Of a DNA stretch of 64,000 nucleotides, positions 3,001 through 37,003 are shown piece after piece (position 1 is the stretch's first letter; every line of letters begins with the position of its first letter). Both the position numbers and the translations under genes were made by a program. Source of the stretch: Incurvaria masculella (lineage: Eukaryota; Arthropoda; Insecta; Lepidoptera; Incurvariidae); contig OX335641.1 in the NCBI GenBank assembly GCA_946894095.1, positions 10,930,501 through 10,994,500 of the forward strand, written 5' to 3'. The notes under the pieces are model-generated. The model did not search any database and was not told the origin of the DNA. It was given only the letters and a program-made list of their open reading frames with translations.

Positions 3001-3632
3001 AGCTCTTCATAGCGACCTCTCTGTCTATCTCAAGCACGACGATAGAGACAAGACAATACTCGTGTCGAGAACGCTGGAAAAAACTGTTGTACCGTCGAGA
3101 TTAATTTCCGCGACGCGACCCGCATTTCAGGGCGATGGGAAGGATAGACAATAACCTCACAGTAAAGTTCATATGCATCTTTAAAACATGTCTTATTAGT
3201 AATCAAAACTGCAGGATAGCGCCATGTAAACACTGTATCTTCATTACACTTGTAGTTTAGTAGAACATTAGTATTATTCGCTCTGAACTGTGAACTCGCG
3301 ACTATTTAAAAAAATAATAGGTACCTAATGGAAAAGTATGATTGGTATGGAAATTATGGGATAAGGTGGTACGGTATAAGTACTTTTAACTTTTTAAAGA
3401 CACGCACGTATGAGTCTATCTAATTAAAAATTAATGACTAAGGGTGGAGTGCACAATTTCTGGTTATTGTTATGGTTATTATATTACCGTCCTAATTTTT
3501 CGCCTTAAGAAGAAAAAAGTTAGATCTATAATAAACGTAACTTTATTTTTGGGTTTCACACACAAAACAAATTTATTGATCCGCCGATTTGACTAAGTGA
3601 AGAAGAACCCGCAAAGTTACTTCACCGGTCTA
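1..3632. other. Intergenic DNA, nothing recognised
   Basis: AT-rich unique sequence. Open frames here are at most 95 codons, overlap each other on both strands, and show no motif, no matching splice signals and no compositional sign of coding. A GC-richer patch at about 930-1010 and another at 2155-2240 contain no frame I recognise. Distal exons of the minus-strand gene that starts at 18073 could lie in this direction, but I could not identify any. Confidence 0.5.
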
Positions 3633-4039: not shown

Positions 4040-4345
4040 TGAGTTCTTTACGATTATAAATCCGATAATCGAGACAAGTTCGGAGGGCCGAGGGATTTGC
4101 CTCGATAATAAGGCTTGAGGGGGCGAAGTAATTGATCGCGATAATCTCGTAGCCGGCCGGCGGCCGCGCGGCCGGGTGGCGCCGCCTTCGACAGCCGCGC
4201 GATTTCTACACGCACGCAGCTATCTTCTCGCAATCTCCGATACACACGTACCCGGGAAATTATTGTCGAGACCCCCCCCCCCCCTCTGCCGCGGATACTA
4301 GAACCTTGCTTTACGGTGGATTCTGCTTGCATCTCACCAGAGACG
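4040..4345. other. GC/CpG-rich island without convincing ORF
   Basis: A sharply GC-rich patch in AT-rich surroundings, with CpG-dense words around 4152-4205 (ccggccggcggccgcgcgg) and a run of C at about 4271-4284. A 92-codon minus-strand frame spans it but is arginine-rich low-complexity translation of the GC-rich DNA and matches no family I know. In such genomes islands like this often mark promoters or untranslated exons; here I see neither a TATA box nor a matching splice pair, so the function is open. Confidence 0.3.
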
Positions 4346-5260
4346 GATTTCCCTATGGACCGAGTGGGCCCGGCCTAGGGCGGCAAAATTTCGGGGGCGG
4401 CACAACATGGTGAGTTTTTTTGCAGTCGCGTCCACTAACCCGTCAATGTTTAAAAACTATTCGTAAGCATCAATATCGAATCTTATCTTATCATGTACAT
4501 ACTTTCGCATCTTTTAACTTTCATTTAATTCTTATAAATCAATAAATTTATCGTGGTTTAAAGCATGTAGGAGGAGAGTGGGGCCAGCAATTTTCTATAC
4601 ACCTAGTGCAGTCAAGTTATCTAATCCACCCCTGCATATCACATTTTTTCACACGATTTTGGTGACGATGGAAATATGCTAAATGTTTAATCTTTTTAGT
4701 CAATGTCCTCAATGCAGGTGAAGCGTTGAATCAATGTTTATATAATATCTTAAACACTTTGATAGTAAGATGCATTGACTACGGGAGGAGGGACTGTAGG
4801 CTTCCTGAGGATGTTTACTTTTACAGAAGCAAGCATCAGTTTCTACAGACATATCATCACGCCGGTTGGTCAGGCAGTGATGATAGAACGAGATGTGCTA
4901 CGATCAAAATTTACTTCTTTTGTTCCCTACAAACATACATATTATAATACACGCTCGAGGATTACGGGTGCCTGATCTTTACGAAAAACTACATATATCT
5001 GGTCGCGGTAGGTTCTCATTGGCCGCCCGACATGACTCACTTCTGCGCTGTAATTTTGTTTCGTCATCCTTTCGTCATCGACTCGGTCTACATATCTACG
5101 GTCTCCATAATTCTAATTCGAGATTTTTAAATCTTCTTTCAATTTACAATCAGCTATAAATGCACTCATCAAAACCTGAAGAGAAAGAAAGCCGTCCACG
5201 GCGACGAGTATCAAACCGATGATGTCTCTCGAGGGGAGGGAAATATACATATAGATATAT

Positions 5261-5300
5261 ATTTGTGGGGCACATGACCAAAGTCATGTGTCCCACAAAT
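5261..5300. repeat. Hairpin-forming inverted repeat
   Basis: Arms of 18 bp (ATTTGTGGGGCACATGAC and its complement) with one G/T-type mismatch, separated by 4 bases. It sits just after an AT dinucleotide-like stretch. It could be the centre of a foldback element or a chance cruciform; no longer terminal repeats are visible around it. Confidence 0.6.
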
Positions 5301-5984
5301 GAATAGGCCACGGGTATTCAATAATCATTTTCAAATATCAGATTGCAAGCTGAAAAATTTTTTTTAAATGGCACCTAGGTTTACAATTGTTTTAGTCATA
5401 TTAGGTGTGTGACGATATCATAATAAACCTTGCTTCGTCCTGGTTAGTTGATCCACTTTCGCACTCTGCACAAGGTCAGCGTTTTTCCAGGCTAAAACAT
5501 ACGACGTGTGCACACTTTCAAAGGTCCCCGATAGCCTGACGCATCAGCAACATCTGGCCAGCGCGAATGAATGAACCGTCGAAATTAATACACCACAAAA
5601 AATACGAACGCGACGCTGCCCTCCTTCGAAATTTAACCTTAAAAATAACGCAAAATATCAGAATCAGGACTTTATTTGCGAACATTAAAGTTTAACGTAA
5701 GTTTGCACGGATGAAGGATTCGAAAAAATCTCTACCGCTAGCGGGGAAATTTGTACTCACGCAGCAGCCAATAAAGTCTAAAACATTAAATCGTCTGTGC
5801 CCGCAGATTTGCGTCCTATTTCCACTTTAGTTGAGATATATTTGTTGGGATGCCATGAAATCCTTTGAGCATATCGTCTGGCACCTCCGGGCACGAATAT
5901 TCTTCTGTTGCCGTGTGCTTGATGTTTAGAGACGTTTTTCCGTGACTCTTGTCGTCATTGCGAAGGGGGAACGGCAGAACGTCT

Positions 5985-7105
5985 AATATGCAGATCGTAT
6001 AGTATCACATTTTAACAAAATTTTAAAACCATGCACAACGTATAATCGGCAGATCGTATAATTTTATACGTAGTGCATGAAGAAGTTTAAAAAATAAAAT
6101 TACTTATTTCTCCATGCCTAACGTATAATAGTCACAACGTATAAAATTATGATCTTTATTTAACAAAAAAAGAAAACCATTCATATCATATAATTCAAAA
6201 AGTTTTCATACGATAAGCGCCCTTACGAATATACATTTAAAGCGTATACTCGCACGCGACTTTTCGACCGTCTCAATTAGCGTAAGGTGGCCTTGTTACT
6301 CTTTAACAAATATCGATTCGTAGCGATTTCAGCCTTAAATGTATCGCTATTAGGGCGCTTTATGCAGTGCTTAAATGGCATATTATACGTTCTGCATGGT
6401 TTTCTTTTTTTGTGAATTCACGTTAGGAATATTATACGTTGTGACTATTATACGTTATGCATGATGGAAAGAGTTGATTCTACTTTTAAACTTTCTTCAT
6501 GCACAACGTATACAATTATACGTTGTGAATATTATACGTAGTGAATACGACTCAATTTTAAAACCATGCACAACGTATAATCGGCAGATCGTATAATTTT
6601 ATACGTAGTGCATAAAGAAGTTTAAAAAATAAAATTACTTATTTCTCCATGCATAACGTATTATATAATAGTCACAACGTATAATATTATGATCTTTATT
6701 TAACAAAAAAAGAAAACCATGCATATCATATAATCCAAATACTTTTCATACGATAAGCGCCCTTATGAATATACTTTTAAAACGTATACTCGCACGTGAC
6801 GGTTCGACCGTCTCAATTAGCGTAAGGTGGCCTTTCGAAATTGTAGCAAATATCGATTCGTAGCAATTTCAGCCTTAAATGTATCGTTAATAGGGCGCTT
6901 TATGCAGTGCTTCTTGGCATATTATACGTTGTGACTATTATACGTTCTGCATGATGCAAAGAGTTGATTTTATTTTTAAACTTTATTCATGCACAACGTA
7001 TAACATTATACGTTGTGAATATTATACGATATGCATGGTTTTCATTTTTTGGAAAAAAAATACTATTATACGTTGTGAATATTATACGTAGTGAATACGA
7101 CTCGA
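5985..7105. repeat. Tandem dimer of a 0.54-kb palindromic unit
   Basis: Two near-identical copies lie head to tail (about 6012-6551 and 6552-7103); landmark words recur with an offset of about 535-540 bp. Each copy is itself imperfectly palindromic: the left part has CACAACGTATAAT words and a 'aagcgccctta' segment, the right part has ATTATACGTTGTG words and 'agggcgctt'. I count about twenty ACGTATA/TATACGT-type words over the pair. There is no protein-coding content. The structure suggests a non-autonomous element with arrays of subterminal binding sites, or a satellite seed; the superfamily is unknown. Confidence 0.75.
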
Positions 7106-7518: not shown

Positions 7519-7538
7519 TCAGAAGTGGGATTGAAACC
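7519..7538 (+). promoter_or_regulatory. Primer-binding site matching tRNA-Leu 3' region
   Basis: TCAGAAGTGGGATTGAAACC directly abuts the left LTR. The first 14 bases are complementary to the 3' acceptor/T-arm of animal tRNA-Leu (…AATCCCACTTCTGACA). The usual TGG, complementary to the CCA tail, and the next TG are missing, so the pairing begins inside the acceptor stem. The match to tRNA-Leu is from memory of conserved tRNA sequence. Confidence 0.65.
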
Positions 7539-7549
7539 AGCCTTGCAAG

Positions 7550-8133
7550 ATGTCGGGACCTTATCATGGTGGACTCGGCAAACGGACGCGAAAAAAAAGT
7601 GAAGATGTTAGCAAAATGGCCAACAGCTTGAAAAATTTTTTTTCCGAGTTAATCGAAACGAACTCTTCACCAACCCCTTTCAAGAAAAGAAAGACCACGC
7701 ATGCTGACGCGGAATTGGTTCCAAAGTTTGATCCCGATTCTAAGAATACCAATGTTAAGGTGTGGGTGAACAAAATCGACCAATTGGGCAGCATCCATGA
7801 TTGGAGCGATGCGGATAAATCGTACGTAATGCAAATGCGGCTTCGTGGCCCTGCCCGGGAATGGTACGAGAATTTAGAGACTTATGATCTCACCTGGGAC
7901 GAATGGAAGGAAGCTATAGAACGGGCATTTCCAAGATCTGTCGATTTCGCGGATCTTCTAGAAGAAATGATGAGTCGTCACAAGAAGAACGATGAAACCA
8001 TGACGCGATATTATCATGATAAACTGGCTATGATCAAGAGGTGCAAGCTGGACGACGAAGCTGCTATATCATGCATTATTCGAGGACTTCCATCAGATCT
8101 AAGAATTAACACGAAAAAGCCTACAAATGCCAA
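7550..8133 (+). pseudogene. gag: gag, capsid part, frameshifted
   Basis: Structural polyprotein of the gypsy-type element, which would form the virus-like particle. The frame opens with ATG 31 bases after the left LTR and reads a basic N-terminus (GKRTRKKSEDV, then PFKKRK). A retrotransposon gag capsid domain follows at about residues 60-190, with the typical blocks 'KVWVNKID', 'MRLRGPAREWYENL', 'TWDEWKEAIERAFP' and 'YYHDKLAMIKRCKL', and the 'IIRGLP' end. The reading stays open to 8605 (351 codons), but near 8115-8135 the gag homology moves to the next frame (…DELYYGYLSLLENYKN), so a one-base indel breaks the gene there. The later part of the 351-codon ORF is out-of-frame sequence until the protease segment. 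Confidence 0.9.
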
Positions 8134-8137
8134 ACTA

Positions 8138-8323
8138 CTGATGAGTTATACTACGGTTACTTATCATTGCTCGAAAACTATAAGAATAACAAGGAACAAG
8201 GCACTACCTTATCAGGGAACACTGCGACTACACCTGCTACGTGGAGAGCAGCTGTCATTTGCTACATGTGCAGGAAGCCGGGACACGAGGCCAATACCTG
8301 CAGGAGCTACTTACAGTGCGAGA
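8138..8323 (+). pseudogene. gag: gag, nucleocapsid CCHC part, in shifted frame
   Basis: Continuation of gag in the +1-shifted frame. It reads the capsid end, then a perfect CCHC zinc knuckle (CYMCRKPGHEANTC, 8260-8301), which binds the genomic RNA during packaging. A second knuckle begins (CEKCNRRG) but runs into a stop just after; its H and last C appear in another frame ('VANCW'), so a small deletion cuts the second knuckle. Normal gypsy nucleocapsids carry one or two knuckles, so both were probably present in the parent. Confidence 0.8.
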
Positions 8324-8379
8324 AGTGTAACAGGCGTGGCTAACTGCTGGTTCGCGGATGGTGCTTCAAGAAATGATGG

Positions 8380-8605
8380 CGATGGAGCTAAAATCGAGGT
8401 GAGGTTTACAACTTTCGATGTCATCCTAGACTTGTACAGAAAGCGCATCATCATAAAGGTTCATCCTTTAATTACTTACTTGGATACGGGAAGCCGAGTA
8501 TTATTGCTAACAGTCAGGTTAGTAAAATTGGCCTACCCACAAAATGTTGAAACATCGGTCTCAGTCAATATAACTAAGTTAAGTGTGCATAGCGGTGGAA
8601 GTTGA
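8380..8605 (+). pseudogene. Retropepsin (protease) fragment
   Basis: Back in the frame of the initial ATG, the translation reads 'TYLDTGSRVLLLTVRLVKL' with the active-site triad DTG at 8483-8491 (DTGS variant). This is the aspartic protease that processes the Gag-Pol polyprotein; as a retroviral-type enzyme it would act as a dimer. The flap and the C-terminal ILG(R/M)D segment are not seen, and the frame ends at 8605, so no functional protease can be made from this copy. Confidence 0.7.
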
Positions 8606-10619: not shown

Positions 10620-10735
10620 TAGATCGATACGTAAATCCCCTGTGTGCTTACAAAAAGGGCAATTAGAGTAAGCTTGAAGTCGAACTACATCCTACAGAAC
10701 AGCCTATTCGAATACACCAACATAAGAGCTGTGTG
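10620..10735 (+). pseudogene. pol: Integrase remnant (zinc-binding/linker segment)
   Basis: The plus strand reads 'LEVELHPTEQPIRIHQHK' around 10672-10725, resembling the linker between the integrase zinc domain and its catalytic core in gypsy elements (…ELHPIEKP…). A weak zinc-domain-like 'IRKSPVCLQKGQLE' precedes it. The DDE catalytic core should follow but is replaced by the minisatellite. Identification rests on one short block. Confidence 0.5.
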
Positions 10736-11041
10736 CCAACTATAAAGCTGTGTGCTGACTGTTACGCTGTGTGCCAACTACAAAGCTGTGTGCCAACTAT
10801 AAAGCTGTGTGCCAACTTTAAAGCTGTGTGCCAAATACAAAGCTGTGTGCCAACTATAAAGCTATGTGCCAACTATAAAGCTATGTGCCAACTGTAAAGC
10901 TATGTGCCAACTGTAAAGCTGTGTGCCAACGAAAAGCTGTGTGCGAAAATAAAAGCTGTGTGCCAACTTTAATGCTGTGTGCCAACGTGTAAGCTGTGTG
11001 CTAACATAAAAGCTGTGTGCTATCTTTAAAGCTGCGTGTTA
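10728..11041 (+). repeat. 19-bp minisatellite inside the gypsy element
   Basis: About 17 tandem units of AAAGCTGTGTGCCAACTAT with substitutions and 1-2 base length changes; three adjacent units share a G-to-A variant (AAAGCTATGTGCC), showing duplication within the array. Degenerate units continue to about 11145. The array occupies the place of the integrase core. Confidence 0.9.
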
Positions 11042-20057: not shown

Positions 20058-20061
20058 ATAC
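20058..20061 (+). repeat. Left target-site duplication ATAC
   Basis: ATAC precedes the left LTR (…cttggATAC|TGTAAACC) and the same four bases follow the right LTR (…GTCCACA|ATACcatg). Together with TG…CA ends this fixes the borders of the giant element to the base. Confidence 0.9.
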
Positions 20062-22113
20062 TGTAAACCTCCAGACCCCCCCTTAAATAGACTCCTAGCC
20101 TACATTAGCTTATACATATCTAACCTAAGTTATGTACCTTATATTTCCCTTGGATACATCCTACATTAATTACCTATTTACCATGTATCCACTCGTCCCA
20201 TTTGTTCTCCCCATTGGCTCGTGATCGTCCTATATGCTTTCATTATTTACATTACATAACCATTTGTCTAATATATTCCCATTTACTGTTTCCTGATTTG
20301 CTCACGTTAAATCTAGTTATTTTACTACATTACTTGCTTAGGTAACATGTATTCTCCTGAATATTGTTGTCAAATCCTCATTGGTGCTATGCCCTCCCCC
20401 TGTACCTAGCTGTCTGTCTCTTTCGGTTCTTCTAATCGGTTCCTTTCTCCCTATCCTAACCTGATACATAATCTCTCTCTCTCTCTCATACACGCGCTCT
20501 CACATACAAACACAAATCTGAATTGATTGGAATAGAGCATTTCAGCATGCCCAGAACTTCAAAAAAATTTTTACCCCATGGGGTAATGGTGACGCCCCTC
20601 ACAGTCCAAGGTCCATCCATGGCACTGTTATCCCGCGTCCCCACATGATCGCCTTCCTGCCTTCAGGCTGTATATGCGACCTCTGCTTCAAAAAGCGGCG
20701 GCCAACCATCCTGAATATGGCCTCTGAACACCAAGGCTCAATTCCCGTGTAGGGATGTATGAGTTTATGTGGTTCATTATATACCAATTGGGGTATTGGA
20801 TTTACAACATGACCACTATATATTTTGAGTGTCCACTGACAACGTCAAGTACGACACATTAGGTATCACAAGAATTTTCGTTTTGTCAGCCGATCAAACG
20901 GTGACGGAAAACTACGGCGGGTGACCATAGTTACGAATCTGTCTTGTACCAGCCCACATGAATGTAGGACATACCTCAGACCCTCCCATCTGCCATTACT
21001 AATGCATGGACATAAGGGTAGTTTCGTGAACTGCTCCGGACGTACCAAAGCGTAGTCACTTTAAAGATTTTCGCGTCTAGTGACATTAGCCACACGCGTT
21101 GCCAAGCCTTTCCTGGACTCAGGGTAGGTCATGAGAGTGTCTCCACATTTTCACGGTTCCGGCACTTGGCAGATCGTGGTAAAGCCAATAAAGGCTTTCA
21201 GAAGAGCTGATAGAAACAGCAGTTCAAGATAAGCGGTTATCCGCAGTCATGACAAACCCTCAAGGTTGTCGACTAATTTAAGCAGGGAAACAGGAAGTTG
21301 CCTGCGAAATGTACACTGAGGTCAATCCAAGATGGATATGCCTTCAGATTTTGTATTTATTAAGATAGTCAACCTGGTCGCCGGTTGTCGAGCGAACCAG
21401 AGTATGGCCTCCGCCTTCCTCTCAAACGAGGTGAACATTTTTATATTGGAACATGACTCCCAGGTCTAAATGCCAACAATTTAAAATACGGTGTCATAGT
21501 GTCATTTATGTTCAGAGAGATATTTGGTATGTATTGTATCATCGTAGTGTTTTTTTTTTTTTGCGATAATGTCAATACTATATTTTTCTTTCATGGTTTT
21601 CTAGAGTTTGACTGAGTATGAAAGTCTTAATGGGTTCCGGCTCCTTTCAGTATAAAGGGGTACCGCCCAATCTAACTTGAGGCTCAAATTCAGGATCCGC
21701 AGCTTCTCGGAATGTTCGTTAGTGATGCTACATTTACGTTTAAGGTACAATCAATCTGGCATGGAACCTCATAGAGATCCCAGACCCGACCGATGTCCCG
21801 TAATGCCTCGTTTTCTGGCTGCACTGCAAACAAAAATCCACATAGCGTGCACAAGTATGTGGATTAAACATGCTTCCCACAACTCGACATCCATCGCCTT
21901 AACATTTCTGTGAAGAAATATCGTTTTATTCTTTTGTAGCTAGCTAGATAGATTTTATCTAGAAAAAGCGAACCGGTGTACGTGACTGTTCCGTCGCCCC
22001 CACTATGGACTCCCGGTCCTACTATTTAACACTGATCCTAGGAATTTAATATCTTTCTGGTTCAGCGTGCGCTGACGCACTCCCTCATTTCACTCACACC
22101 CAAACACTCCTAA

Positions 22114-22475
22114 GCCCTTCCTAAATATAGTCCATATAAATCAAACACAGAAACCCATCCTCCTGTGAGGCGAGATTTTGTTCCACGTAAAACCACAGCC
22201 TGTAACCCTCATCCGAGCCATCGGACCTTTAATACCCACGTGAAGCCCCCTCCTCGAATACTGTACACATTATTCGAACACAGAAAACCCTCCTCCTGTA
22301 GTACAAGATTTTATTCCATGTAAAACCGCAGCCTGTAACCCTCGTCCGAGTCGACGAACCATCATTACACACGCGAGGTCCTTCCTGAATATATTACAAA
22401 ATATCTGAGCACAAAATAATCCTCCCCCCACTATAACCAGAGATTTTATTCCACGTAAAATCTTACCTTGAACTT
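22114..22475. repeat. Triplicated ~130-bp subrepeat in the LTR
   Basis: Three diverged units begin near 22114, 22250 and 22379 (cttcctaaatatagtcc / cctcctcgaatactgtac / ccttcctgaatatattac) and share 'gattttattccacgtaaaa' and 'cagcctgtaaccctcgtccgag' cores. The same array is at about 32027-32388 in the right LTR. Function unknown; repeated blocks in LTRs are often enhancers or packaging/structure elements. Confidence 0.75.
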
Positions 22476-23392
22476 TATAAAGTCTCTCTTCATACAATTC
22501 GTAATTCAAAATGCAGTACACCCGCATATCTAATCCTTCATCCAATGCGCTTGCACATCTAACAGGCCGCGCGAACTTCGATATACAATCAATACATATG
22601 CCGTCACCTCCCCCACACGGGGCTCCTCATCGCAGTTTGCTACCGCTTGTGGTCCCCAACAATATGTACAGACTTACCAAGGTCCAGTGCCGTCCATTCT
22701 TTCACTCTATTTTAACAAAAGCTGTTTGCAAATCTACCTACTCTGCAAGAAAACATAGATTATTTAGCTAACTCATCTCGTTCCTAAATTTGCACTTTTG
22801 CTACTTTCTCAAACTCAATGACTCGTTTCAATGTCCCCAAACAAAATCTAAACGAGGGAAAAGACTTTGCAGGTGCAAATTCTTTAGTAAAACACTTCCG
22901 CGTATTCAACCTACGTGCCGTAAGCCCTGAATAGAGGCATACTGCCCCAGAGACTCGCTCGCCACCGACTGACGAGGGACGCGCGCGCCTTTTCTGTTCT
23001 AGGCTCTGATCCCCCTCGCCCCTCCCTTTGAATCCCGCCATTTTTCGAGTGGTCATGCGCACTCTCCCCTCTCCCCCGCTCATCTTTCCTCCCGGCTCCC
23101 CTCTGTACCCGCTCTCCACCCCTCGCCCGGCGTTGGCCTTGGGCGCGTGAGTCGTGTTCTTATTATTTTATTATTATTTACCTGTCGCTAAGCAGAGCAT
23201 TATTCGAGTACTTTCGAACGTTGTACCTGCGCAGTCGCTCAGGGTCATACCTCAGACCCTCCCGTCGCCCCTCAGCCTGCGATGACCTTGATTTTATGTT
23301 TAGTCAGATGTGCGTAAAACAAAAGTATTATTTTTACTTGTCGCTAAGCGGCATCGCGACGCAACTTTCATATGCCTATAGGATGCTACTTT

Positions 23393-23410
23393 GTTGTATT
23401 TATATATCAT
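23393..23410 (-). promoter_or_regulatory. Candidate TATA box of the giant LTR
   Basis: On the minus strand ATGATATATAAATACAAC lies only about 30-45 bp inside the LTR start (23439). If it is used, U3 is very short and transcription would start near 23365, giving an RNA leader of more than 3 kb. The identical site in the other LTR is at 33306-33323. Confidence 0.4.
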
Positions 23411-23439
23411 GTTTTGAGTGTGGAGGCTGGCCGTCCACA

Positions 23440-23452
23440 GCCGCCCCCAATT
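23440..23452 (-). promoter_or_regulatory. Candidate polypurine tract of the giant element
   Basis: On the minus strand AATTGGGGGCGGC ends exactly at the left LTR start (…GGCGGC|TGTGGACGG). It is the only purine-rich tract at an inner LTR border, and it sets the element's orientation. The opposite inner border (29958-29974) is not purine-rich. Confidence 0.6.
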
Positions 23453-25765
23453 AACTGTGACTGCACATGGCACACGATGCCACACGCAGGGAAGCAGTTA
23501 ATTCAATAAGGTAAGGACAATTGTTACAACATAAAATAAAATAATGTCTTTATTCCATATTAAGGAAACCTCAACCACGCCCCCATCTCAAAATTACCTT
23601 CAACATCCTTCCACCTACTGCGAACTTCCCATATGGAAAATGTTTTTTGTTTAGTTTTGTTTTTGTTTGTTTGTTTGTTTGTTTGTTAGTTTGTTTGTTG
23701 TTGCTGCACCTAACCTCCTTCAAAGTAATTTAACTTATGTTAACCTAACCTACATCCACAATTTATCCTAATCTTACCTAGCCTAACCTAATCTAATCCA
23801 ACTGTAATCACCCACAGCCTAAACCTAACCTAGCCTACCTATACCTATCTACCAATAAAGACTAATAATAATAATAATAATGACTAATAAAGGCACGTGT
23901 TCGTCTAGTATTATTAATCTAATTTTAATCCAATCATTTATACTTAACCTCAAATAGAGTTTCCTAAGTATTCAACTAAAATATTACTCACCCATACTAT
24001 ATTGTATATATTCTTCTCTTATTCTTTAACTAAGAAAATATCAAATATTTCAGCAGAAGTTATTATATTGCTGCTCAATAAACTTCGATAAAAACAAATA
24101 AAATGAAAATTCGCGGAAATTTAAAAGAATTATAAAATTTAAGACGATTTCGAGCTAGGCCCCAATAGTAGAGCCCCATTGAAAATTTACAAATGTTCTC
24201 CTCCTCTCAACCAAGTGAAAACCTGCCTAAATATTCGAATCGCTTTCTCCTCTTTGTTGTTACAAATTTTGAAGAAATTTCCATGCTCAAAATTTAGCAA
24301 AGTATAAAGAGATCCAATTCACTGATCTCTACTTTACATCTGCCAACAGGGAGGTCAAGCTTATGATATGATCAAATAACTTGATTGAATCTATTTGCAT
24401 ACCAACCATGAAGGTTGGATGTTACTGCATGAATGACATGGTCATTTTCGGATTAGTGTTGTACATAGAGCATACCAACTATGAAGGGTTGGATTTTACT
24501 GCCATCTCAGCGTCACGCAGTAGCGTGCTAAACCCTGCAAATGCCTGTACTCGCCATTAATAAATAGGTGTGGTTCTGGCATTTTTCCTCTGACATTGGG
24601 CTGATTTAGTGAACACAGTCATTATATGGTCACAATGCCCTAATATGGAATGGTTCAGGAAGTTGTTTAATGTATTCAAGCAATTCAAACTTTATAGTCT
24701 GAAATACACAATGACCGAACCTCAAATTCGCATTGAAATTGTATGGTGTTTTCAGTTGTTCTCTGGGAACAATATGAACAATGTTTACCCTATGTATTCA
24801 TGGTCAATTCACTAGTAGTACTCGTCAACGTTGCACTCCGGGTGAGTGTGTGGTTTTGAAGGTTAACCAATACTTCCCACGTTGCAGTATGCAAGTTCCC
24901 ATCTTGACAACTGATCCATCGGTGGAAGTCACCCGCTATTCAGCTAAGGATCTTCTTCATAAACGACTTTCCAGAACTAGTTAAGCCATGAACACAAAAG
25001 GCACTCATATCTCCATAATTGGCCATCAGACAACACGGTCAACTAGCAATGTGGATGAACTCTATTTGTTTTGTTATTTTATTGAGATCTCCACAGAATC
25101 CATGTCATTTTACTTTAATCAAGACAGGTATTCTACAATTCAGTTAAATTGAATCGTAGCCGACCTCATAATCCATACCAAGAATCAATTTAAAGTTGGT
25201 AAAACCACCAACATAAAATGCAGGAAGTATAGATCGTTAATAAATCAAACGTTTGGAAAACGTATGTGAAAATTATCTCACATATATCGTGATCGAAGAC
25301 AACTCAAACGAGTAGAGAATACATTGAACAAAAGATGTTCTGAAAATATTGGTTGAAACACATCAAAGCCTTTCCTCTTCAAAATCTACATGATTTGAAA
25401 TTTACTGATTTGAAGCTTAAAGTAATAAAATAAAAATATATTTAATTTCTTGAACCACAATTTATTAAGTGCATTTGTATGTAGTTCATTGTATATTTAC
25501 CATCAGCAGATTATTTAGTTTCAACCTTGGCAACTCGCTGAAACCATCAAAATATCAAGGTAATTATTTGATGTTGTCCTCGAATATTTTGTAACAAACC
25601 ATCACAGTGAAATCATCACTATAAATCAAATTTAATAATTTATAATCTAAAACAAAGTCTAATAAATGAATGATTTAATCAAATAATCCAGAGAACCTTA
25701 TTCAAGCTTCATATCTATGGTAATAAAAAACTAAGTGATTTATATTTACGATATTTCAATTACTG
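23453..25765 (-). other. Giant element interior, left part, with decayed pol trace
   Basis: Mixed-composition sequence. It contains a GTTT-type simple run (about 23641-23700), a stretch of CCTAACCTA words (23706-23860) and an AAT run. On the minus strand 25147-25233 reads a retropepsin-like C-terminal motif 'FKLILGMDYEVGYDS', preceded by 'LPAFYVGG', and 24580-24640 reads 'MTVFTKSAQ', faintly like an integrase core block (FSK.AQ). Stops interrupt every frame. If these are real they are the last remnants of pol in the expected order for a minus-strand element. Confidence 0.4.
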
Positions 25766-26635
25766 CTCAGCAAAGAAAAACCTAATCAAACACACCCATG
25801 GCTCACACTCTCCTAAATATTCTTTCAATAATCAATTTAATAATCATAATAAATCACACAAAATATCAAAGAAAACTATACCATTGAATCCACTCAAACA
25901 CACTCATACACTAATCCCCCTTTTTTTTTTTAACCCCCCCCCCCCATTCTAAACACCTCTACCCTTAACTTACCGAAACCCCCATTATCCTTCTACCCCC
26001 CCCCCCCCATTCTAAACACTTCTACCCTTAACTTACCGAAACCCCCATTATCCTTCTACCCCCCCCCCCCCCTTATCTGATAACCATTTTATCATACATA
26101 TATGTAGCCGAATACGATCGCCCCCACTCCCTCCTAGTCTCTGATCCCCCCTCAGCCATAGCGGAAATATCATTTCCACCTTTTCCCCAATTCCGTGGCC
26201 CCGCGAAACACCGCCGCATACCCGTAGACTGACTCTTTGGTCATAGTACGTCACCAATATTGGAGCAACTGTCACTTCTAACCTATTTTCCAATTCCGTG
26301 GTCACACTGAACTAAGTATTCGAAATTTCCCGCGTAATCTTCCAACAACGTTTGCTCAAGTTCAAATTTAAGTTCACTTCCCTACTTGCTAAAACCAATC
26401 GCTATTTTTCTGTCTACTTCTGAAAAAAAATTTTTTTTTTTTTTTTTAGATATCCCGTCGTCACCTCACAATAAGACCGTTTCAATGCTCCCATTCACTA
26501 AGTCTATCCACACTTTTAATACTATTTCACTTACACTAAAGTTGAACTCTAGGGAAAGAGACACGCTAAAATAAGCCTATGCCATCATCACTCGTAATCC
26601 CCCCCTCCCCCAGAATGTAACCCTATCTTCTTACG

Positions 26636-26671
<36 letters not shown>

Positions 26672-28960
26672 TGACTCCTAAAATCAAACACATATTTAAC
26701 GATAACCTTGATTCTATTGATCCCAATTGGAATGAAACAACGATTTCAAATGCCACTCCTTGATAAATAAACAATACCTTCATTCACTTAATACCATACG
26801 TATATGTATATATATATATATATATATTTATTTATACCGCAACGCGTTCCCCTTCTCCAGTTTGCCTTTATTTTTTTTTTTCAAAACCCTACCACTAGCA
26901 TGATACACCTGCTCGAACTACGTTACAATAATACTCAAAACGCAAGCCAAAATACTTGGCCGTCAATATTATGTCAATCTAAATAAATTCAGATTTGTGT
27001 CCGAATAATCTCAAAATACGAAAATAGTATTCACCGAATTGTATTAAATTTAAAATACCCGTCAACATTATTGTTAAGAGAAATCAATAAAAAATTGTTA
27101 AATAAATTATTATTATATCTTTCTCCAAAAGGTAATACACCATCGCCCACTATCAACACGGTCAGCAACGGGATCCCCTATATACAGTAACCGACCGATC
27201 CCTAAGTCATCAAAAATAAATATTTCCCATTCCACACCCCTCGCTCTCGTATACGATGATGACGTCAACCTTCTTGTGGCTAAACCACATGCAAACATCA
27301 CCCCGACTAACATCCAAACATCATGATATCGCATCATAGCACAAAGTTCGCCCCCACCTTCATACAATAAAATATCCACAACTCGTTATCGCGAAGCCAC
27401 CCACACATCACATTATCCTCCCTAAGTCCAACACTCGTACTATTACGCACCTGCGACCCGAACATTCAGATCTCAGATTTCATCGGAATAGACTGTCACA
27501 ACAAATTCACCCCTTTTTTTTTTCAATCTCTACGGAACCCTAACGCTAGTTTATCTCGCCCTCACATAAACTCACAGTCATTACTAATTCTCGTTCCGTT
27601 CTCGAACTTCCTCACTCACCCAAGGCTACTTGCACTTCAATGTTGTAAATATGTCTAAGTAATTGCACTATAACCCGTAAAATTGTAATCACTTATTCCT
27701 AATATTTTTCCCCTATCAAATAACACCAACTTAAAACTCAAAGTAAAACAACAAAACCCCGATGGAATATCGTAACCTTCAAGGAGTCTGTCTTCTTCAA
27801 TATCTAACATCCATAACCATTCCTTCATTCATAATTAATCAATCTATCTTTAAATAAACCCCAACGCAATCTCTAGAATAATGGTAATAAGCGCGCGTGG
27901 TTCCGTTATTCAATAATAATATCATTCTTGACGCTCCTACCGCGACCCTAGACACAAGACGCACGAACCACGTGACCCGCCGCTCGCGCCACCAATCCAT
28001 GTGACTGTATAGGTATGTACACCCGCTGTTCAGCGCGCGAGTTCACCCCGCCCCGAGTCGGCACCACCGCACTGAACGAACGACGGTTGGAGCGGCAAGG
28101 AACGTCCCGCGCCCCATCCAAATCAATGTTACCTCGCAATACTATAATAACCCCACAAAATATGTAATAATGTAATAAAAATAACAAATTATAATAATTA
28201 TTATTTCCTTCCTTGCTTTCACAAAAGTTTTAACCAATATTTAAGTTACGTGATGGTTTACAACCTAAGTTCCCATGTTTTTCTACTCACCCCATTCTAA
28301 TACCAATATTATACCTACTCCCACACTTCGTCTTCGTTACGGACCCCATGCGACAACCAAAATTTTACATATCAACGAAATATTATAAATATTATTAGTT
28401 CAAATTTGCTCATACCTCATTTTAAAATATACCTCTCCGCACAACGACTTATTTACCCTACCACTATTTACCTTTGTTTCGATTAATATATTACATATGA
28501 CCAGTGCACTTTATCAATACTTTCCCGTGACCAATGGTCAACACAAATATTACGCACACGATACTTCTACAATCTCCGCCACGTGTTCGACTCATGATCT
28601 CTCTAATACTCAGCGGAGGATCAGACGCCCCGGCTCGTTAAGCCCGTCGCCCCCATAATTTCGACAGGGTACGAATATTTAATAAATGTTTTAACGGAAT
28701 AATTTTAAGTAAAACGGTAAATCTACAGCAAGCGTAGTCAATAATAGTAATTAAAACATAATTTCATTAGGATTGGTCGCCCCCACAACATTGCCGCCAT
28801 CCCTCGGACCCCAATCGGCCCCCCATATAATCGGTCCTGACTTTAGCCAATCCTTGCGTCTATTAATCTGTAATTTTCCTATAGTAAATAGAAATCTATG
28901 TTCATATAGATACTTAAGACAACATTCGCCCTGAGGAGACATTATTCAGTTCTATCCGCT
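25766..28960 (-). other. Giant element interior, C-rich/G-poor strand segment
   Basis: The plus strand is full of C runs and T runs (long C runs near 25934, 25996 and 26059; T runs at 26430-26448 and 26639-26667) and poor in G, so the element's sense strand is G- and A-rich. ORFs are at most 88 codons with no recognisable domain. A (TA)n run lies at about 26803-26828. I see no gene here. Confidence 0.6.
25934..26072. repeat. 63-bp tandem duplication ending in C runs
   Basis: The unit 'attctaaacacctctaccct…ccttctac' plus a C run occurs at 25946 and again at 26009 with one visible difference (acctct/acttct). The C runs at each junction suggest slippage or template switching made the duplication. 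Confidence 0.85.
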
Positions 28961-29974
28961 CAACGGAACCAACCGATCCTAAATGCAAATCTTCCTTTGA
29001 CCGATTTTCGTTCGTGGAAAATTGGTTCTCTATTTAAAGAAACCTAAAAGATATCACTTCCTTGATTGTTTACCGTAGTGAGACGTAACTAAACCTAACT
29101 AAAGGTTTTATTATTTTTATTTCTGCCGACTTTAACGTGCGTGTGTAATTACAATTATTAAAATGTTAATGGTACGAGAGTAACACATTCAGATAAGATG
29201 GAGATCACCATAAGAGTGGATTATTGAAGAATGGTACAGAACTTAATTTAAGCTGAAATTCATAACACTGTTTAGTACCCAATTCATTAGCACAACCAAT
29301 TTTATACTGACTTACCTGCGGATAAAACATTTCAGAACACATAATTAACAATTTCCAAAGGTACTAACCTTTGTACTACTTTTTTAAAGTAATTCTGAAC
29401 CCATGAGCAATAGTTTTCACACATTCTAAACTGTAGTCAAACAATTTACCTGGTAGGTACCTCTGAGCCTTCCCAGAGGTAAGCGTTCGGCGTCGCGCTC
29501 GCGCGATCAACGCGTCTCTCATAACGCATCCAATGCGCTAGTGGCGCGATCACACAACGCATTCAATGCGCTGGTGGCGTAATCACACAACCGCTCTCGT
29601 GCTGTTGAAACATCCTATATTCCCTAATCTCTTTTCATAGTTTCATAATATACTTTAATAAATTACAACAACAGTGTAATATGTTGAGAATTGTTTACAA
29701 ACATGATTTTATTTTTCCGTGAACCGACTAACCGCGTTTAACTATTTCCCTGCTGACAATTTTACGTCTTATTACTTTTATATATTTTTATTCTTTTGCT
29801 TCAAGTATTTTCTTAGTTATTTTTCGTGAACAAATACGAATAATATGACTACGCTATTTGACCCATTTTATTTGTTGTGTCCTTTAGTAACCTTGGTTCT
29901 TTTTAATTGTAGGATTTGCTTAAAGATATAACCAAGTCCTTGTCAACAAATCATCCTGTGGTCACGGCAACAGC
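28961..29974 (-). other. Giant element leader region next to the right (5') LTR
   Basis: In the inferred sense this is the segment after the 5' LTR, where the primer site, packaging signal and gag would lie. The first bases (minus strand GCTGTTGCCGTGACCACAGG) lack the TGG of a normal primer site and match no tRNA end I know. A 33-bp tandem duplication lies at 29523-29590 (cgcatccaatgcgctagtgg / cgcattcaatgcgctggtgg). No gag frame is present. Confidence 0.5.
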
Positions 29975-32900
29975 TGTAAACCTCCAGACCCCCCCTTAAA
30001 TAGACTCCTAGCCTACATTAGCTTATACATATCTAACCTAAGTTATGTACCTTATATTTCCCTTGGATACATCCTACATTAATTACCTATTTACCATGTA
30101 TCCACTCGTCCCATTTGTTCTCCCCATTGGCTCGTGATCGTCCTATATGCTTTCATTATTTACATTACATAACCATTCGTCTAATATATTCCCATTTACT
30201 GTTTCCTGATTTGCTCACGTTAAATCTAGTTATTTTACTACATTACTTGCTTAGGTAACATGTATTCTCCTGAATATTGTTGTCAAATCCTCATTGGTGC
30301 TATGCCCTCCCCCTGTACCTAGCTGTCTGTCTCTTTCGGTTCTTCTAATCGGTTCCTTTCTCCCTATCCTAACCTGATACATAATCTCTCTCTCTCTCTC
30401 ATACACGCGCTCTCACATACAAACACAAATCTGAATTGATTGGAATAGAGCATTTCAGCATGCCCAGAACTTCAAAAAAATTTTTACCCCATGGGGTAAT
30501 GGTGACGCCCCTCACAGTCCAAGGTCCATCCATGGCACTGTTATCCCGCGTCCCCACATGATCGCCTTCCTGCCTTCAGGCTGTATATGCGACCTCTGCT
30601 TCAAAAAGCGGCGGCCAACCATCCTGAATATGGCCTCTGAACACCAAGGCTCAATTCCCGTGTAGGGATGTATGAGTTTATGTGGTTCATTATATACCAA
30701 TTGGGGTATTGGATTTACAACATGACCACTATATATTTTGAGTGTCCACTGACAACGTCAAGTACGACACATTAGGTATCACAAGAATTTTCGTTTTGTC
30801 AGCCGATCAAACGGTGACGGAAAACTACGGCGGGTGACCATAGTTACGAATCTGTCTTGTACCAGCCCACATGAATGTAGGACATACCTCAGACCCTCCC
30901 ATCTGCCATTACTAATGCATGGACATAAGGGTAGTTTCGTGAACTGCTCCGGACGTACCAAAGCGTAGTCACTTTAAAGATTTTCGCGTCTAGTGACATT
31001 AGCCACACGCGTTGCCAAGCCTTTCCTGGACTCAGGGTAGGTCATGAGAGTGTCTCCACATTTTCACGGTTCCGGCACTTGGCAGATCGTGGTAAAGCCA
31101 ATAAAGGCTTTCAGAAGAGCTGATAGAAACAGCAGTTCAAGATAAGCGGTTATCCGCAGTCATGACAAACCCTCAAGGTTGTCGACTAATTTAAGCAGGG
31201 AAACAGGAAGTTGCCTGCGAAATGTACACTGAGGTCAATCCAAGATGGATATGCCTTCAGATTTTGTATTTATTAAGATAGTCAACCTGGTCGCCGGTTG
31301 TCGAGCGAACCAGAGTATGGCCTCCGCCTTCCTCTCAAACGAGGTGAACATTTTTATATTGGAACATGACTCCCAGGTCTAAATGCCAACAATTTAAAAT
31401 ACGGTGTCATAGTGTCATTTATGTTCAGAGAGATATTTGGTATGTATTGTATCATCGTAGTGTTTTTTTTTTTTTGCGATAATGTCAATACTATATTTTT
31501 CTTTCATGGTTTTCTAGAGTTTGACTGAGTATGAAAGTCTTAATGGGTTCCGGCTCCTTTCAGTATAAAGGGGTACCGCCCAATCTAACTTGAGGCTCAA
31601 ATTCAGGATCCGCAGCTTCTCGGAATGTTCGTTAGTGATGCTACATTTACGTTTAAGGTACAATCAATCTGGCATGGAACCTCATAGAGATCCCAGACCC
31701 GACCGATGTCCCGTAATGCCTCGTTTTCTGGCTGCACTGCAAACAAAAATCCACATAGCGTGCACAAGTATGTGGATTAAACATGCTTCCCACAACTCGA
31801 CATCCATCGCCTTAACATTTCTGTGAAGAAATATCGTTTTATTCTTTTGTAGCTAGCTAGATAGATTTTATCTAGAAAAAGCGAACCGGTGTACGTGACT
31901 GTTCCGTCGCCCCCACTATGGACTCCCGGTCCTACTATTTAACACTGATCCTAGGAATTTAATATCTTTCTGGTTCAGCGTGCGCTGACGCACTCCCTCA
32001 TTTCACTCACACCCAAACACTCCTAAGCCCTTCCTAAATATAGTCCATATAAATCAAACACAGAAACCCATCCTCCTGTGAGGCGAGATTTTGTTCCACG
32101 TAAAACCACAGCCTGTAACCCTCATCCGAGCCATCGGACCTTTAATACCCACGTGAAGCCCCCTCCTCGAATACTGTACACATTATTCGAACACAGAAAA
32201 CCCTCCTCCTGTAGTACAAGATTTTATTCCATGTAAAACCGCAGCCTGTAACCCTCGTCCGAGTCGACGAACCATCATTACACACGCGAGGTCCTTCCTG
32301 AATATATTACAAAATATCTGAGCACAAAATAATCCTCCCCCCACTATAACCAGAGATTTTATTCCACGTAAAATCTTACCTTGAACTTTATAAAGTCTCT
32401 CTTCATACAATTCGTAATTCAAAATGCAGTACACCCGCATATCTAATCCTTCATCCAATGCGCTTGCACATCTAACAGGCCGCGCGAACTTCGATATACA
32501 ATCAATACATATGCCGTCACCTCCCCCACACGGGGCTCCTCATCGCAGTTTGCTACCGCTTGTGGTCCCCAACAATATGTACAGACTTACCAAGGTCCAG
32601 TGCCGTCCATTCTTTCACTCTATTTTAACAAAAGCTGTTTGCAAATCTACCTACTCTGCAAGAAAACATAGATTATTTAGCTAACTCATCTCGTTCCTAA
32701 ATTTGCACTTTTGCTACTTTCTCAAACTCAATGACTCGTTTCAATGTCCCCAAACAAAATCTAAACGAGGGAAAAGACTTTGCAGGTGCAAATTCTTTAG
32801 TAAAACACTTCCGCGTATTCAACCTACGTGCCGTAAGCCCTGAATAGAGGCATACTGCCCCAGAGACTCGCTCGCCACCGACTGACGAGGGACGCGCGCG

Positions 32901-33352
32901 CCTTTTCTGTTCTAGGCTCTGATCCCCCTCGCCCCTCCCTTTGAATCCCGCCATTTTTCGAGTGGTCATGCGCACTCTCCCCTCTCCCCCGCTCATCTTT
33001 CCTCCCGGCTCCCCTCTGTACCCGCTCTCCACCCCTCGCCCGGCGTTGGCCTTGGGCGCGTGAGTCGTGTTCTTATTATTTTATTATTATTTACCTGTCG
33101 CTAAGCAGAGCATTATTCGAGTACTTTCGAACGTTGTACCTGCGCAGTCGCTCAGGGTCATACCTCAGACCCTCCCGTCGCCCCTCAGCCTGCGATGACC
33201 TTGATTTTATGTTTAGTCAGATGTGCGTAAAACAAAAGTATTATTTTTACTTGTCGCTAAGCGGCATCGCGACGCAACTTTCATATGCCTATAGGATGCT
33301 ACTTTGTTGTATTTATATATCATGTTTTGAGTGTGGAGGCTGGCCGTCCACA
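29975..33352 (-). repeat. Right LTR (5' LTR in element sense), 3378 bp
   Basis: Second copy of the long terminal repeat at a constant offset of 9913 bp. It is followed directly by ATAC (33353-33356) and unique host DNA, and carries all the sub-features of the left copy. Confidence 0.92.
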
Positions 33353-33356
33353 ATAC

Positions 33357-35358: not shown

Positions 35359-35726
35359 GGTGCCCCCGTAAGCATCAGAAAATTTCGCCTCCCATACAAA
35401 CGTAGTTTAATAATCATTTGAAAACCACTGTAGCAATTTACTTGATATTTGGTATCACATATCTGGCAACAAATATCTGTGTCTGCATGCCTTTGTTTTT
35501 TCGATAAATGTATAATGAGTCAAACCACAGATAAAATAAAATTAGTATGAAGATTTTGTTTTTGCTTTCATCTGATTCGGTTTGGATTTTTCAAAAAAAC
35601 AAAAGCATGCAGACACAGATATTGGTTCCCTGATTTTAGATATTAAATATCAATTTAATTGGAACAGCTGTTTTTAAATGATAAGTAAACTACGTTTGTA
35701 TGGGGAGCATAGCTTACGGGCCGTTC
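35359..35726. mobile_element. TTAA-flanked MITE with long inverted repeats
   Basis: TTAA at 35355-35358 and 35727-35730 bound a 368-bp element. The ends (GGTGCCCCCGTAAGC… and …GCTTACGGGCCGTTC) are imperfect inverses, and the inverted similarity continues inward ('catacaaacgtagttta' against 'taaactacgtttgtatg'; 'gtgtctgcatgcctttg' against 'caaaagcatgcagacac'). TTAA targets indicate the piggyBac or Kolobok superfamily. No coding. Confidence 0.7.
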
Positions 35727-36230
35727 TTAAGTTATCAAGTCGCTCACTCGTGGTTTATTTTCGTGGCACTCCATCCACGCACAAAATCTTCCCACATAAT
35801 GATCTTTTTATCGGGGTAAACGACCGGAACGTCATACCCAAGCCTGCGCTGTAAAATTTAACTTTGTACACTAGCGATAAGAAATCATTTTCCACAACTC
35901 CAAAATAAACCGGCGTAAATATCCAAGAATGCATGTGCATAATTTTTGCAGTAAACATCTAACATGATGCAGAATTGATGAGAGCTCCGATAAATGCATA
36001 ATACTCATTTAATCTTGCTATTATTATACGGCTTTACATCGATTTTACATGTAGGTAGAATGAACATCTCAAAGATAGTAGAATATATTTGAACTTTGCT
36101 TTTGTATTATAAAATATATTTCAGATTTAACACATTTTATTTATTTAATATTAAAACTTATAGACAGGTTTATTAAATTTATCATTCACGGTCATTTAAA
36201 TCTCTTCACATTACGTTTTAAAGGACCCAA

Positions 36231-36432
36231 GGGTGGTAAATAATTGGCAGGTGAATTGCAGGGGGACAGACAAGAGTGATTAAATCTGACGTTTAGTTGC
36301 ATTTTGTACCGTGCTGGTAAATTTCGGTTCACTTGGCTGAATAACACATCGTTTTACGAAATGCAACTAAACGTCAGTTTTATCACTCTCTTACCTATTA
36401 ACCTGCTATTCACCCGGCGAGTTAACTTACCC
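36231..36432. mobile_element. Palindromic MITE, ~70-bp inverted arms
   Basis: The left arm starts GGGTGGTAAATAATTGGCAG and ends 'tgacgtttagttgcat'; the right arm is its complement ('atgcaactaaacgtca' … 'gttaacttaccc'), with about 52 bp between. No clear target duplication was seen, so the superfamily is open. Confidence 0.7.
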
Positions 36433-37003
36433 TGGTTACTCCAGGTTGTTTCTCGACAGGGAGTGAATTTCAAATTGAACGACCTTAGAAATAAAGGATC
36501 TACAAGATCGGTTGGTTCAAATAGGCGGAATGCGGACAGTGTATAGGAGTTTTCTGCCTGTTGCGTGTTGAGCTATGATGGTAGAATGGGAACAAAACGT
36601 TATGCAGCTCCGAAGAGCATTCGCCGTGGTAAACACGATAGACAGTTCCGTTCAGTTTGGAGTTGTTGGGTCTCGAGTATATACGGCGCAATTAGAGCTA
36701 TATCAATGGCACGCAAAACAACCGAATCTAGTCCGATCGTGCCTTCTTCACATCGGCTCCATGTTACCTAATTTATCTAACGAACATCGTCCGTTCGAGC
36801 TCACGTAACTACTTACGATACGTGACGATTGAGTACAAACATTATCCGAGCAGAAGACACATTATCTCCAAGACTCCCGCGTGCTCCGACATCGATCTCG
36901 TATTGGTCGACAAGAGAGAAGTAGATATACGCAGACCTGTACGAAAAGAAAAGTGTACGCACAAAACTATACGGCCCTGTATGTTGACATGACTGCTTTT
37001 TAG

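What the first reader, a model, noticed from the sequence alone, without database searches (positions are those of the whole stretch)
20062..33352. 13.3-kb LTR element with 3.4-kb LTRs and an essentially gene-free interior
Seen: 3378-bp direct repeats with TG…CA ends, ATAC duplication, and 6535 bp between them without any ORF over about 90 codons. Known: LTR elements of this plan (LARDs) are described mainly from plants; insect LTRs are normally far shorter. Inference: this may be an undescribed lineage of giant non-autonomous retroelements in Lepidoptera, copied by another element's Gag and Pol.
Basis: partly seen in the sequence, partly recalled or inferred. Interest (0 to 1): 0.88.

Follow-up and report, generated by a model that had tools for sequence, protein, structure and literature searches.

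The report
Giant gene-free LTR retrotransposon family
A 13.3-kb stretch flanked by near-identical 3.4-kb repeats is one of many young copies of a jumping element in which no gene was found, and the same genome holds further gene-free families that share its start signal for copying.

Summary
In detail: 3378-bp LTRs (1 mismatch), TG...CA ends, ATAC duplication, 6535-bp interior with no stop-free frame over 95 codons. The element reads on the MINUS strand: a site matching the tRNA-His end (recalled) lies 2 nt after the LTR, and a purine tract ends at 23440. It is no assembly artefact: the genome has 173 exact LTR ends, and 11 of 11 copies read share borders and carry their own exact 4-bp duplication, with 0-2 substitutions between paired LTRs. 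No sense frame of 60 codons is intact in all copies. The exact primer site led to more gene-free families: LTRs of 3721 bp, of 3724 bp, and a partly resolved smaller one. I saw no coding element with this site, but targeted only 38 of 93 sites, and longer variants were not read. Best reading: LARD-type non-autonomous retroelements, copied in trans by an unidentified helper. LARDs are known from plants; I found no described insect case with LTRs this long. Parts of the LTR and interior are unusually uniform and fold well; the compensatory test was inconclusive.

The parts
20058..20061 (.). target-site duplication ATAC, left
   Evidence: same 4 bases at 33353-33356
33353..33356 (.). target-site duplication ATAC, right
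29975..33352 (-). 5' LTR (sense = minus), 3378 bp, sense ends TGTGGACGGCC...GGAGGTTTACA
20062..23439 (-). 3' LTR, 3378 bp, 1 mismatch to the other
29953..29972 (-). primer-binding site TGTTGCCGTGACCACAGGAT, 2 nt after the LTR; 13 of 14 to the tRNA-His complement (tRNA end recalled). Ten of 11 copies have this TGTTGCC form; the C18 copy has TGGTGCCGTGACCAGGAT exactly
23440..23454 (-). polypurine-tract-like TTAATTGGGGGCGGC directly before the 3' LTR, identical in 11 of 11 copies
23440..29974 (-). gene-free interior, 6535 bp
23803..25905 (-). block 82-88% identical (four blast pieces) to the 3' 2.2 kb of the sister family's LTR, ending at that LTR's terminus; probably an old nested LTR fragment
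24725..25474 (-). low-diversity interior island (pi 0.001-0.003 in 10 copies) inside that block, with little G+C skew; 24575-25474 folds at z -3.8 against 20 shuffles
29975..31352 (-). low-diversity 3' part of the 5' LTR (pi 0-0.006 in 11 copies); 30553-31352 has no skew and folds at z -5.0 against 20 shuffles; 29975-30552 keeps the skew
20062..21439 (-). same part in the 3' LTR (the LTR used for the diversity count)

Best explanation
The stretch is a full-length, very young copy of a non-autonomous LTR retroelement of the LARD plan. Its RNA, read from the minus strand, is inferred to be transcribed from the 5' LTR, packaged and reverse-transcribed from a tRNA-His primer by the Gag and Pol of another, Ty3/Gypsy-like element, and inserted by that element's integrase with a 4-bp duplication. 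Shown: LTR, PBS, PPT and duplication anatomy, many copies, recency, absence of recognisable genes in the 11 copies read, and exchange between lineages. Inferred: transcription, packaging, the helper, template switching as the cause of the exchange, and a role for the uniform LTR core as a signal that the helper recognises.
For: Borders and exact 4-bp duplication in 11 of 11 copies. LTR pairs differ by 8 substitutions in 37,013 compared sites over 11 copies, whereas different copies differ by a median of 1.7% in the LTR, so several source lineages were active recently. 173 exact LTR ends genome-wide against 0 for the reversed control; of the first 100 listed, 80 lie in same-strand neighbour pairs 8.1-13.6 kb apart. 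The PBS is the only position of 128,020 in the window that reaches 13 of 14. PPT identical in 11 of 11. Longest interior stop-free frame 135 codons in any of 11 copies; no sense frame of 60 codons or more of the window's copy is intact in all copies. Mosaic interiors: four-gamete site pairs rise from 2% within 50 bp to 26-30% beyond 500 bp, at least 29 exchanges. Further families of the same plan: LTR 3721 / interior 3965 / TSD CAGT, and LTR 3724 / interior 4470 / 4-bp TSD in 3 of 3 copies.
Against: No helper found. Of 93 exact tRNA-His-type sites (union), 38 were targeted; 15 of these are unclassified singletons, of which only 3 were read downstream. Length variants with LTR-to-LTR spacing of 11.9-12.1 kb (5 pairs) and 13.6 kb (one run of three ends) were not read and might hold genes. 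The tRNA-His sequence is recalled; its gene was not checked in this genome because that search did not complete. An antisense frame of 67 codons (window 24781-24984, +) is intact in 10 of 10 copies, but it lies in the low-diversity island and shows no codon difference either way. No expression data. Mosaicism could also come from gene conversion or crossing-over.
Confidence: 0.85

Rival explanations
1. Deletion or replacement derivative of a coding family that still exists in this genome with the same LTRs; the longer variants (11.9-13.6 kb spacing) are that family or steps toward it.
For: Five neighbour pairs at 11.9-12.1 kb and one run of three ends at 13.6 kb among the first 100 LTR ends, none of them read. 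By my arithmetic on the positions, the extra 2.1 kb of one 12-kb copy (C2:10077203) and the extra 3.7 kb of the 13.6-kb run lie downstream of the interior island.
Against: 2-3.7 kb extra is short for gag-pol (recalled: 4 kb or more). The interior island has 171 candidates, and the 40 scored are 99-100% alike; 33 of 41 spacings are 9.4-10.2 kb, so the short form is the common one. Other gene-free families share the primer type.
Confidence: 0.13
2. Decayed autonomous element: genes were present and have mutated beyond recognition in each copy.
For: The interior is about as long as a gag-pol region (recalled).
Against: LTR pairs are nearly identical while the interior has 121-165 stops per frame and no Pfam trace in the frames scanned; the gene-free form itself has multiplied.
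Confidence: 0.01
3. Assembly or segmental duplication that mimics an LTR element.
For: Near-identical 3.4-kb repeats.
Against: Copies on many contigs with identical termini and their own exact 4-bp duplications, 11 of 11.
Confidence: 0.01

Closest known systems
LARD (large retrotransposon derivatives; barley and other grasses, Kalendar et al. 2004)
   Same: LTRs around a long non-coding interior, non-autonomous, assumed trans-complementation; [quoted passage not shown] the 2004 paper is not held).
Non-coding LTR families cqUNK_1 to cqUNK_45 of Culex quinquefasciatus (PMC3286476, section 14)
   Same: Gene-free LTR elements in an insect with PBS, PPT and TSD and no known coding master copy.
   Different: LTRs 125-931 bp in that table, not 3.3-3.7 kb; TSD mostly 5 bp; none listed with tRNA-His; all are said to carry tandem repeats.
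Helenus and Ajax (PMC10886601, passages); TRIMs such as PbTRIM (PMC3532108, listing only)
   Same: Non-autonomous LTR elements known from animals; some Helenus families and the Gypsy element Gypsy-39_CGi use tRNA-His.
   Different: Ajax is a TRIM with a 5S-type promoter and both groups are described as small-RNA-gene-derived; Rfam finds no RNA gene in this window at gathering level. Element sizes of Helenus were not looked up.

Membership tests
LTR retrotransposon | Direct LTRs with TG...CA ends and a TSD | tested here: met
   11 of 11 copies
LTR retrotransposon | tRNA primer-binding site and polypurine tract next to the LTRs | tested here: met
   the tRNA-His sequence is recalled and its gene was not checked here
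LARD | Long interior without protein-coding capacity | tested here: met
   for the 11 copies read (19 of 38 frames of the window's copy scanned in Pfam); longer variants not read
LARD | Multiplied as a gene-free form | tested here: met
LARD | Conserved RNA secondary structure | tested here: inconclusive
   Uniform, well-folding segments, but the pair-keeping test gave 1-4 of 1000 with one fold and about 300 of 1000 with the other, and some flank windows fold as strongly or more
LARD | Mobilised by another element's proteins | not testable with these tools
   needs particle or cDNA data; no helper found
Ty3/Gypsy superfamily | Order of pol domains | not testable with these tools
   no genes; a 4-bp duplication is merely compatible (recalled)
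TRIM | Short LTRs and almost no interior | tested here: not met
   3378-bp LTR, 6535-bp interior

The most novel reading that the evidence does not exclude
A guild of at least three, probably four, gene-free LTR families in one animal genome shares a primer type and plan but (for the fourth family) no detected sequence beyond it. It has multiplied without any coding member that uses the same primer, held together by a conserved RNA core in the giant LTR that captures a helper's proteins.
Probability: 0.3. Interest if true: 0.8.

Novelty: new variant of a known kind. Interest (0 to 1): 0.62.

Why it matters
[quoted passage not shown] Here are families checked by ends, TSD, PBS and PPT, recent enough that the helper may still be active. 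That makes it testable which signals let a gene-free RNA parasitise a retroelement, and why its LTRs reach 3.4-3.7 kb.

Tried and rejected
Plus-strand orientation: on plus, the places for PBS and purine tract show neither; on minus both are there. Assembly duplication: refuted. Hidden genes: frames with stops were not accepted; 19 of 38 stop-free frames of 60 codons or more gave nothing in Pfam. Coding phase in the conserved island: differences from the sister LTR fall 11/17/10 and 7/6/5 over the three phases, no coding signal. RNA structure by kept or compensated pairs: inconclusive. Rfam and tRNA genes in the window: none. Helper by primer site: 38 of 93 exact sites targeted. They are 5 of this family, 7 sister, 2 third, 3 fourth, 6 in telomere-like arrays and 15 singletons. 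Three singletons were read on and showed no gag-pol-length frame: L054 longest 176 codons (looks like a host CUB-domain gene, my reading, not searched), L075 182, L076 119. Sister interior as a hidden part of the longer variants: 19 of 19 candidates scored, none inside the long-variant intervals among the first 100 ends. TSD of three more sister copies (C1, C13, C10): the 3' LTR end was not in the fetched stretch. Third family: LTR start not settled because of a repeat of about 200 bp. Literature: eight searches listed no paper describing gene-free families with multi-kilobase LTRs in Lepidoptera; only open-licence papers are held, and I looked at listings and passages, not at every paper.
Full report
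What is there. The two repeats are 20062-23439 and 29975-33352, 3378 bp each, with one difference, bounded by ATAC on both sides; the interior is 6535 bp. The interior has 121-165 stops per frame and no stop-free frame above 95 codons. Composition changes at the borders: on the plus strand C exceeds G through most of the element (skew to -0.68), against values near zero in the flanks.

Orientation. On the minus strand the 5' LTR ends ...GGAGGTTTACA and, after GC, TGTTGCCGTGACCACAGGAT follows. It matches the complement of the tRNA-His 3' end (recalled) at 13 of the first 14 positions, and no other of 128,020 positions in the window does as well. Before the other LTR stands TTAATTGGGGGCGGC, a purine-rich tract, identical in 11 of 11 copies. 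The copy on C18 has the exact 18-base tRNA-His complement; the other ten have the TGTTGCC form. So the sense strand is minus. The tRNA gene was not checked because that search did not complete.

Copies. The genome is held without a name: 552 Mb, 31 contigs. A 1001-bp LTR query gave 221 candidates; the 40 scored are 99-100% identical. The 17-base LTR end occurs 173 times against 0 for the reversed control; only the first 100 places are listed. Of these, 80 sit in same-strand neighbour pairs (41 spacings, 8.1-13.6 kb), and 33 of the 41 spacings are 9.4-10.2 kb. Some of the 20 unpaired ends may be solo LTRs; at least one (C1:6116979) has a partner that lacks the exact end. Ten further copies were read in full. 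All 11, the window's included, share the borders and carry an exact 4-bp duplication: ATAC, AGCG, GGGT, CACC, AGTA, AGTA, AACG, AACG, ACAG, AAGT, GTAT. One of them (C3) has an interior shortened to 4749 bp.

Age and lineages. Over 11 LTR pairs there are 8 substitutions in 37,013 sites (one pair also has a 2-base gap), while LTRs of different copies differ by 0.06-3.1%, median 1.7%. At 2.9e-9 per site per generation (recalled, for a butterfly) that is about 37,000 generations on average. Several source lineages have therefore been active recently. Interiors are mosaics: blocks at or near 100% alternate with blocks at 86-97% identity to the window. Four-gamete pairs rise from 24 of 1417 within 50 bp to 0.26-0.30 beyond 500 bp, with at least 29 exchanges in 10 copies (C3 left out) and at least 8 in the LTR of 11. 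Template switching in co-packaged RNA would give this; gene conversion could too.

No genes. Across 10 interiors (C3 left out) no sense frame of 60 codons or more (ATG to stop, as found in the window's copy) stays intact in all; in the LTR the longest, 99 codons, is intact in 8 of 11 with 19 synonymous and 19 non-synonymous codon differences. On the antisense strand a 67-codon frame is intact in 10 of 10 interiors without any codon difference; it lies in the low-diversity island, so this says little. Of 38 stop-to-stop frames of 60 codons or more, 19 were scanned and have no Pfam match near a cut-off.

Relatives. An exact pattern for LTR end, 2-base spacer and tRNA-His complement hit 35 places against 0 in the control, and the 18-base complement alone 89 against 0. 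The union is 93 sites, of which 38 were targeted. Seven belong to a sister family whose LTR end, PBS and leader are about 70% identical to the window's over some 220 bp. One sister copy was read: LTR 3721 bp, pair 99.84% identical, interior 3965 bp with no frame above 109 codons, duplication CAGT. An 1100-bp query from its interior found 19 copies, 94-100% identical, all candidates scored, four of them in a row at 12.1-kb spacing on C16. Three sites belong to a fourth family: LTR 3724 bp, 1 substitution between its LTRs, interior 4470 bp, no frame above 95 codons; three of three copies carry exact duplications (AGAC, read by eye; GAGT and ATGG), and most of the interior of a second copy was read without a frame above 101 codons. 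It has no same-strand blastn match at E 1e-5 to the first two families. A third family, with an LTR of about 1.1 kb and no frame of 100 codons in 7.9 kb, is only partly resolved. No coding element with this primer site was seen, but 55 of 93 sites were not targeted. By coordinate, many of those lie in 37-bp-period rows close to contig ends, and seven belong to this family or the sister.

A nested fragment. The sister LTR from position 1499 to its end is 82-88% identical (four pieces) to the window's interior, sense 4070-6172, window 23803-25905. The likeliest reading is an old fragment of a sister-type LTR, now copied along with the element.

Uniform cores. Diversity is 0.001-0.003 with 3 gap columns in interior sense 4501-5250 and 0-0.006 in LTR sense 2001-3378, against 0.011-0.091 in nearly all other bins. 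The interior core is 90-97% identical to the sister LTR over 4401-5000 and 5201-5500, but only 78-80% in 5001-5200 and mostly 78-89% around. The interior core and LTR sense 1801-2800 have little skew; LTR 2801-3378 keeps it. They fold better than dinucleotide shuffles: 800 nt of the LTR at z -5.0, 900 nt of the interior at z -3.8, a control piece of the interior at -0.2 (shuffles each). In 200-nt windows the LTR core reaches -4.4, but the interior core only -2.9, against a minimum of -2.8 in 40 flank windows. The sister LTR reaches -5.2 sense and -4.1 antisense; the fourth LTR has one 300-nt window at -4.5. Against a structural reading: flank windows fold to -7.9, the antisense strand folds nearly as well in places, and the pair-keeping test is split. 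A recent spread of one version by recombination would also lower diversity.

Place among known things. The plan is that of plant LARDs. [quoted passage not shown] In insects, Culex has 38 gene-free families with LTRs up to 931 bp (PMC3286476, section 14). The LARD category appears in bumblebee (PMC4414376), honey bee (PMC8978429), Scirpophaga (8.84% of the genome, PMC10923946) and Spodoptera littoralis papers (PMC9339325), passages only in each. PMC5718144 (passages) warns that this label is easily wrong in animals. The families here pass the checks that such labels may skip. What is unusual is the 3.3-3.7 kb LTR, the co-existence of several such families with one primer type, and the lack so far of a coding partner.

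Verdict. A real, young, giant-LTR family of the LARD kind, gene-free in every copy read; trans-mobilisation is inferred, the helper unknown, and the species not identified.

Noticed in passing
window 7535-8602 (+): Open frame of 356 codons with Ty3_capsid and Retrotrans_gag matches, from another retroelement; the window holds no second tRNA-His-type site at 13 of 14.
   Followed up: partly
L031, L036, L041, L045, L062, L063; C10:10282-10446, C15:6624-6752 and other contig ends: Rows, many with a 37-bp period, that contain the tRNA-His 3'-end complement, next to TTAGG-type repeats near contig ends.
   Followed up: no
G000 C16:8584211-8621657: Four sister-family interiors in a row at 12.1-kb spacing, as in LTR-sharing tandem arrays; similar rows of three LTR ends of the window's family at C1:29907146 and C9:17037222.
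   Followed up: no
G000 C6:337191-361332: Two pairs of LTR ends with nearly equal spacing (9891 and 9889 bp) 14.25 kb apart on one strand, possibly a segmental duplication.
   Followed up: no
window about 35451-35750 and 36201-36500: Two 300-nt stretches that fold very strongly on both strands (z -5.1 to -8.1), perhaps palindromic small transposons.
   Followed up: no
window 10717-11038: Tandem array of 17 copies of a 19-bp unit.
   Followed up: no
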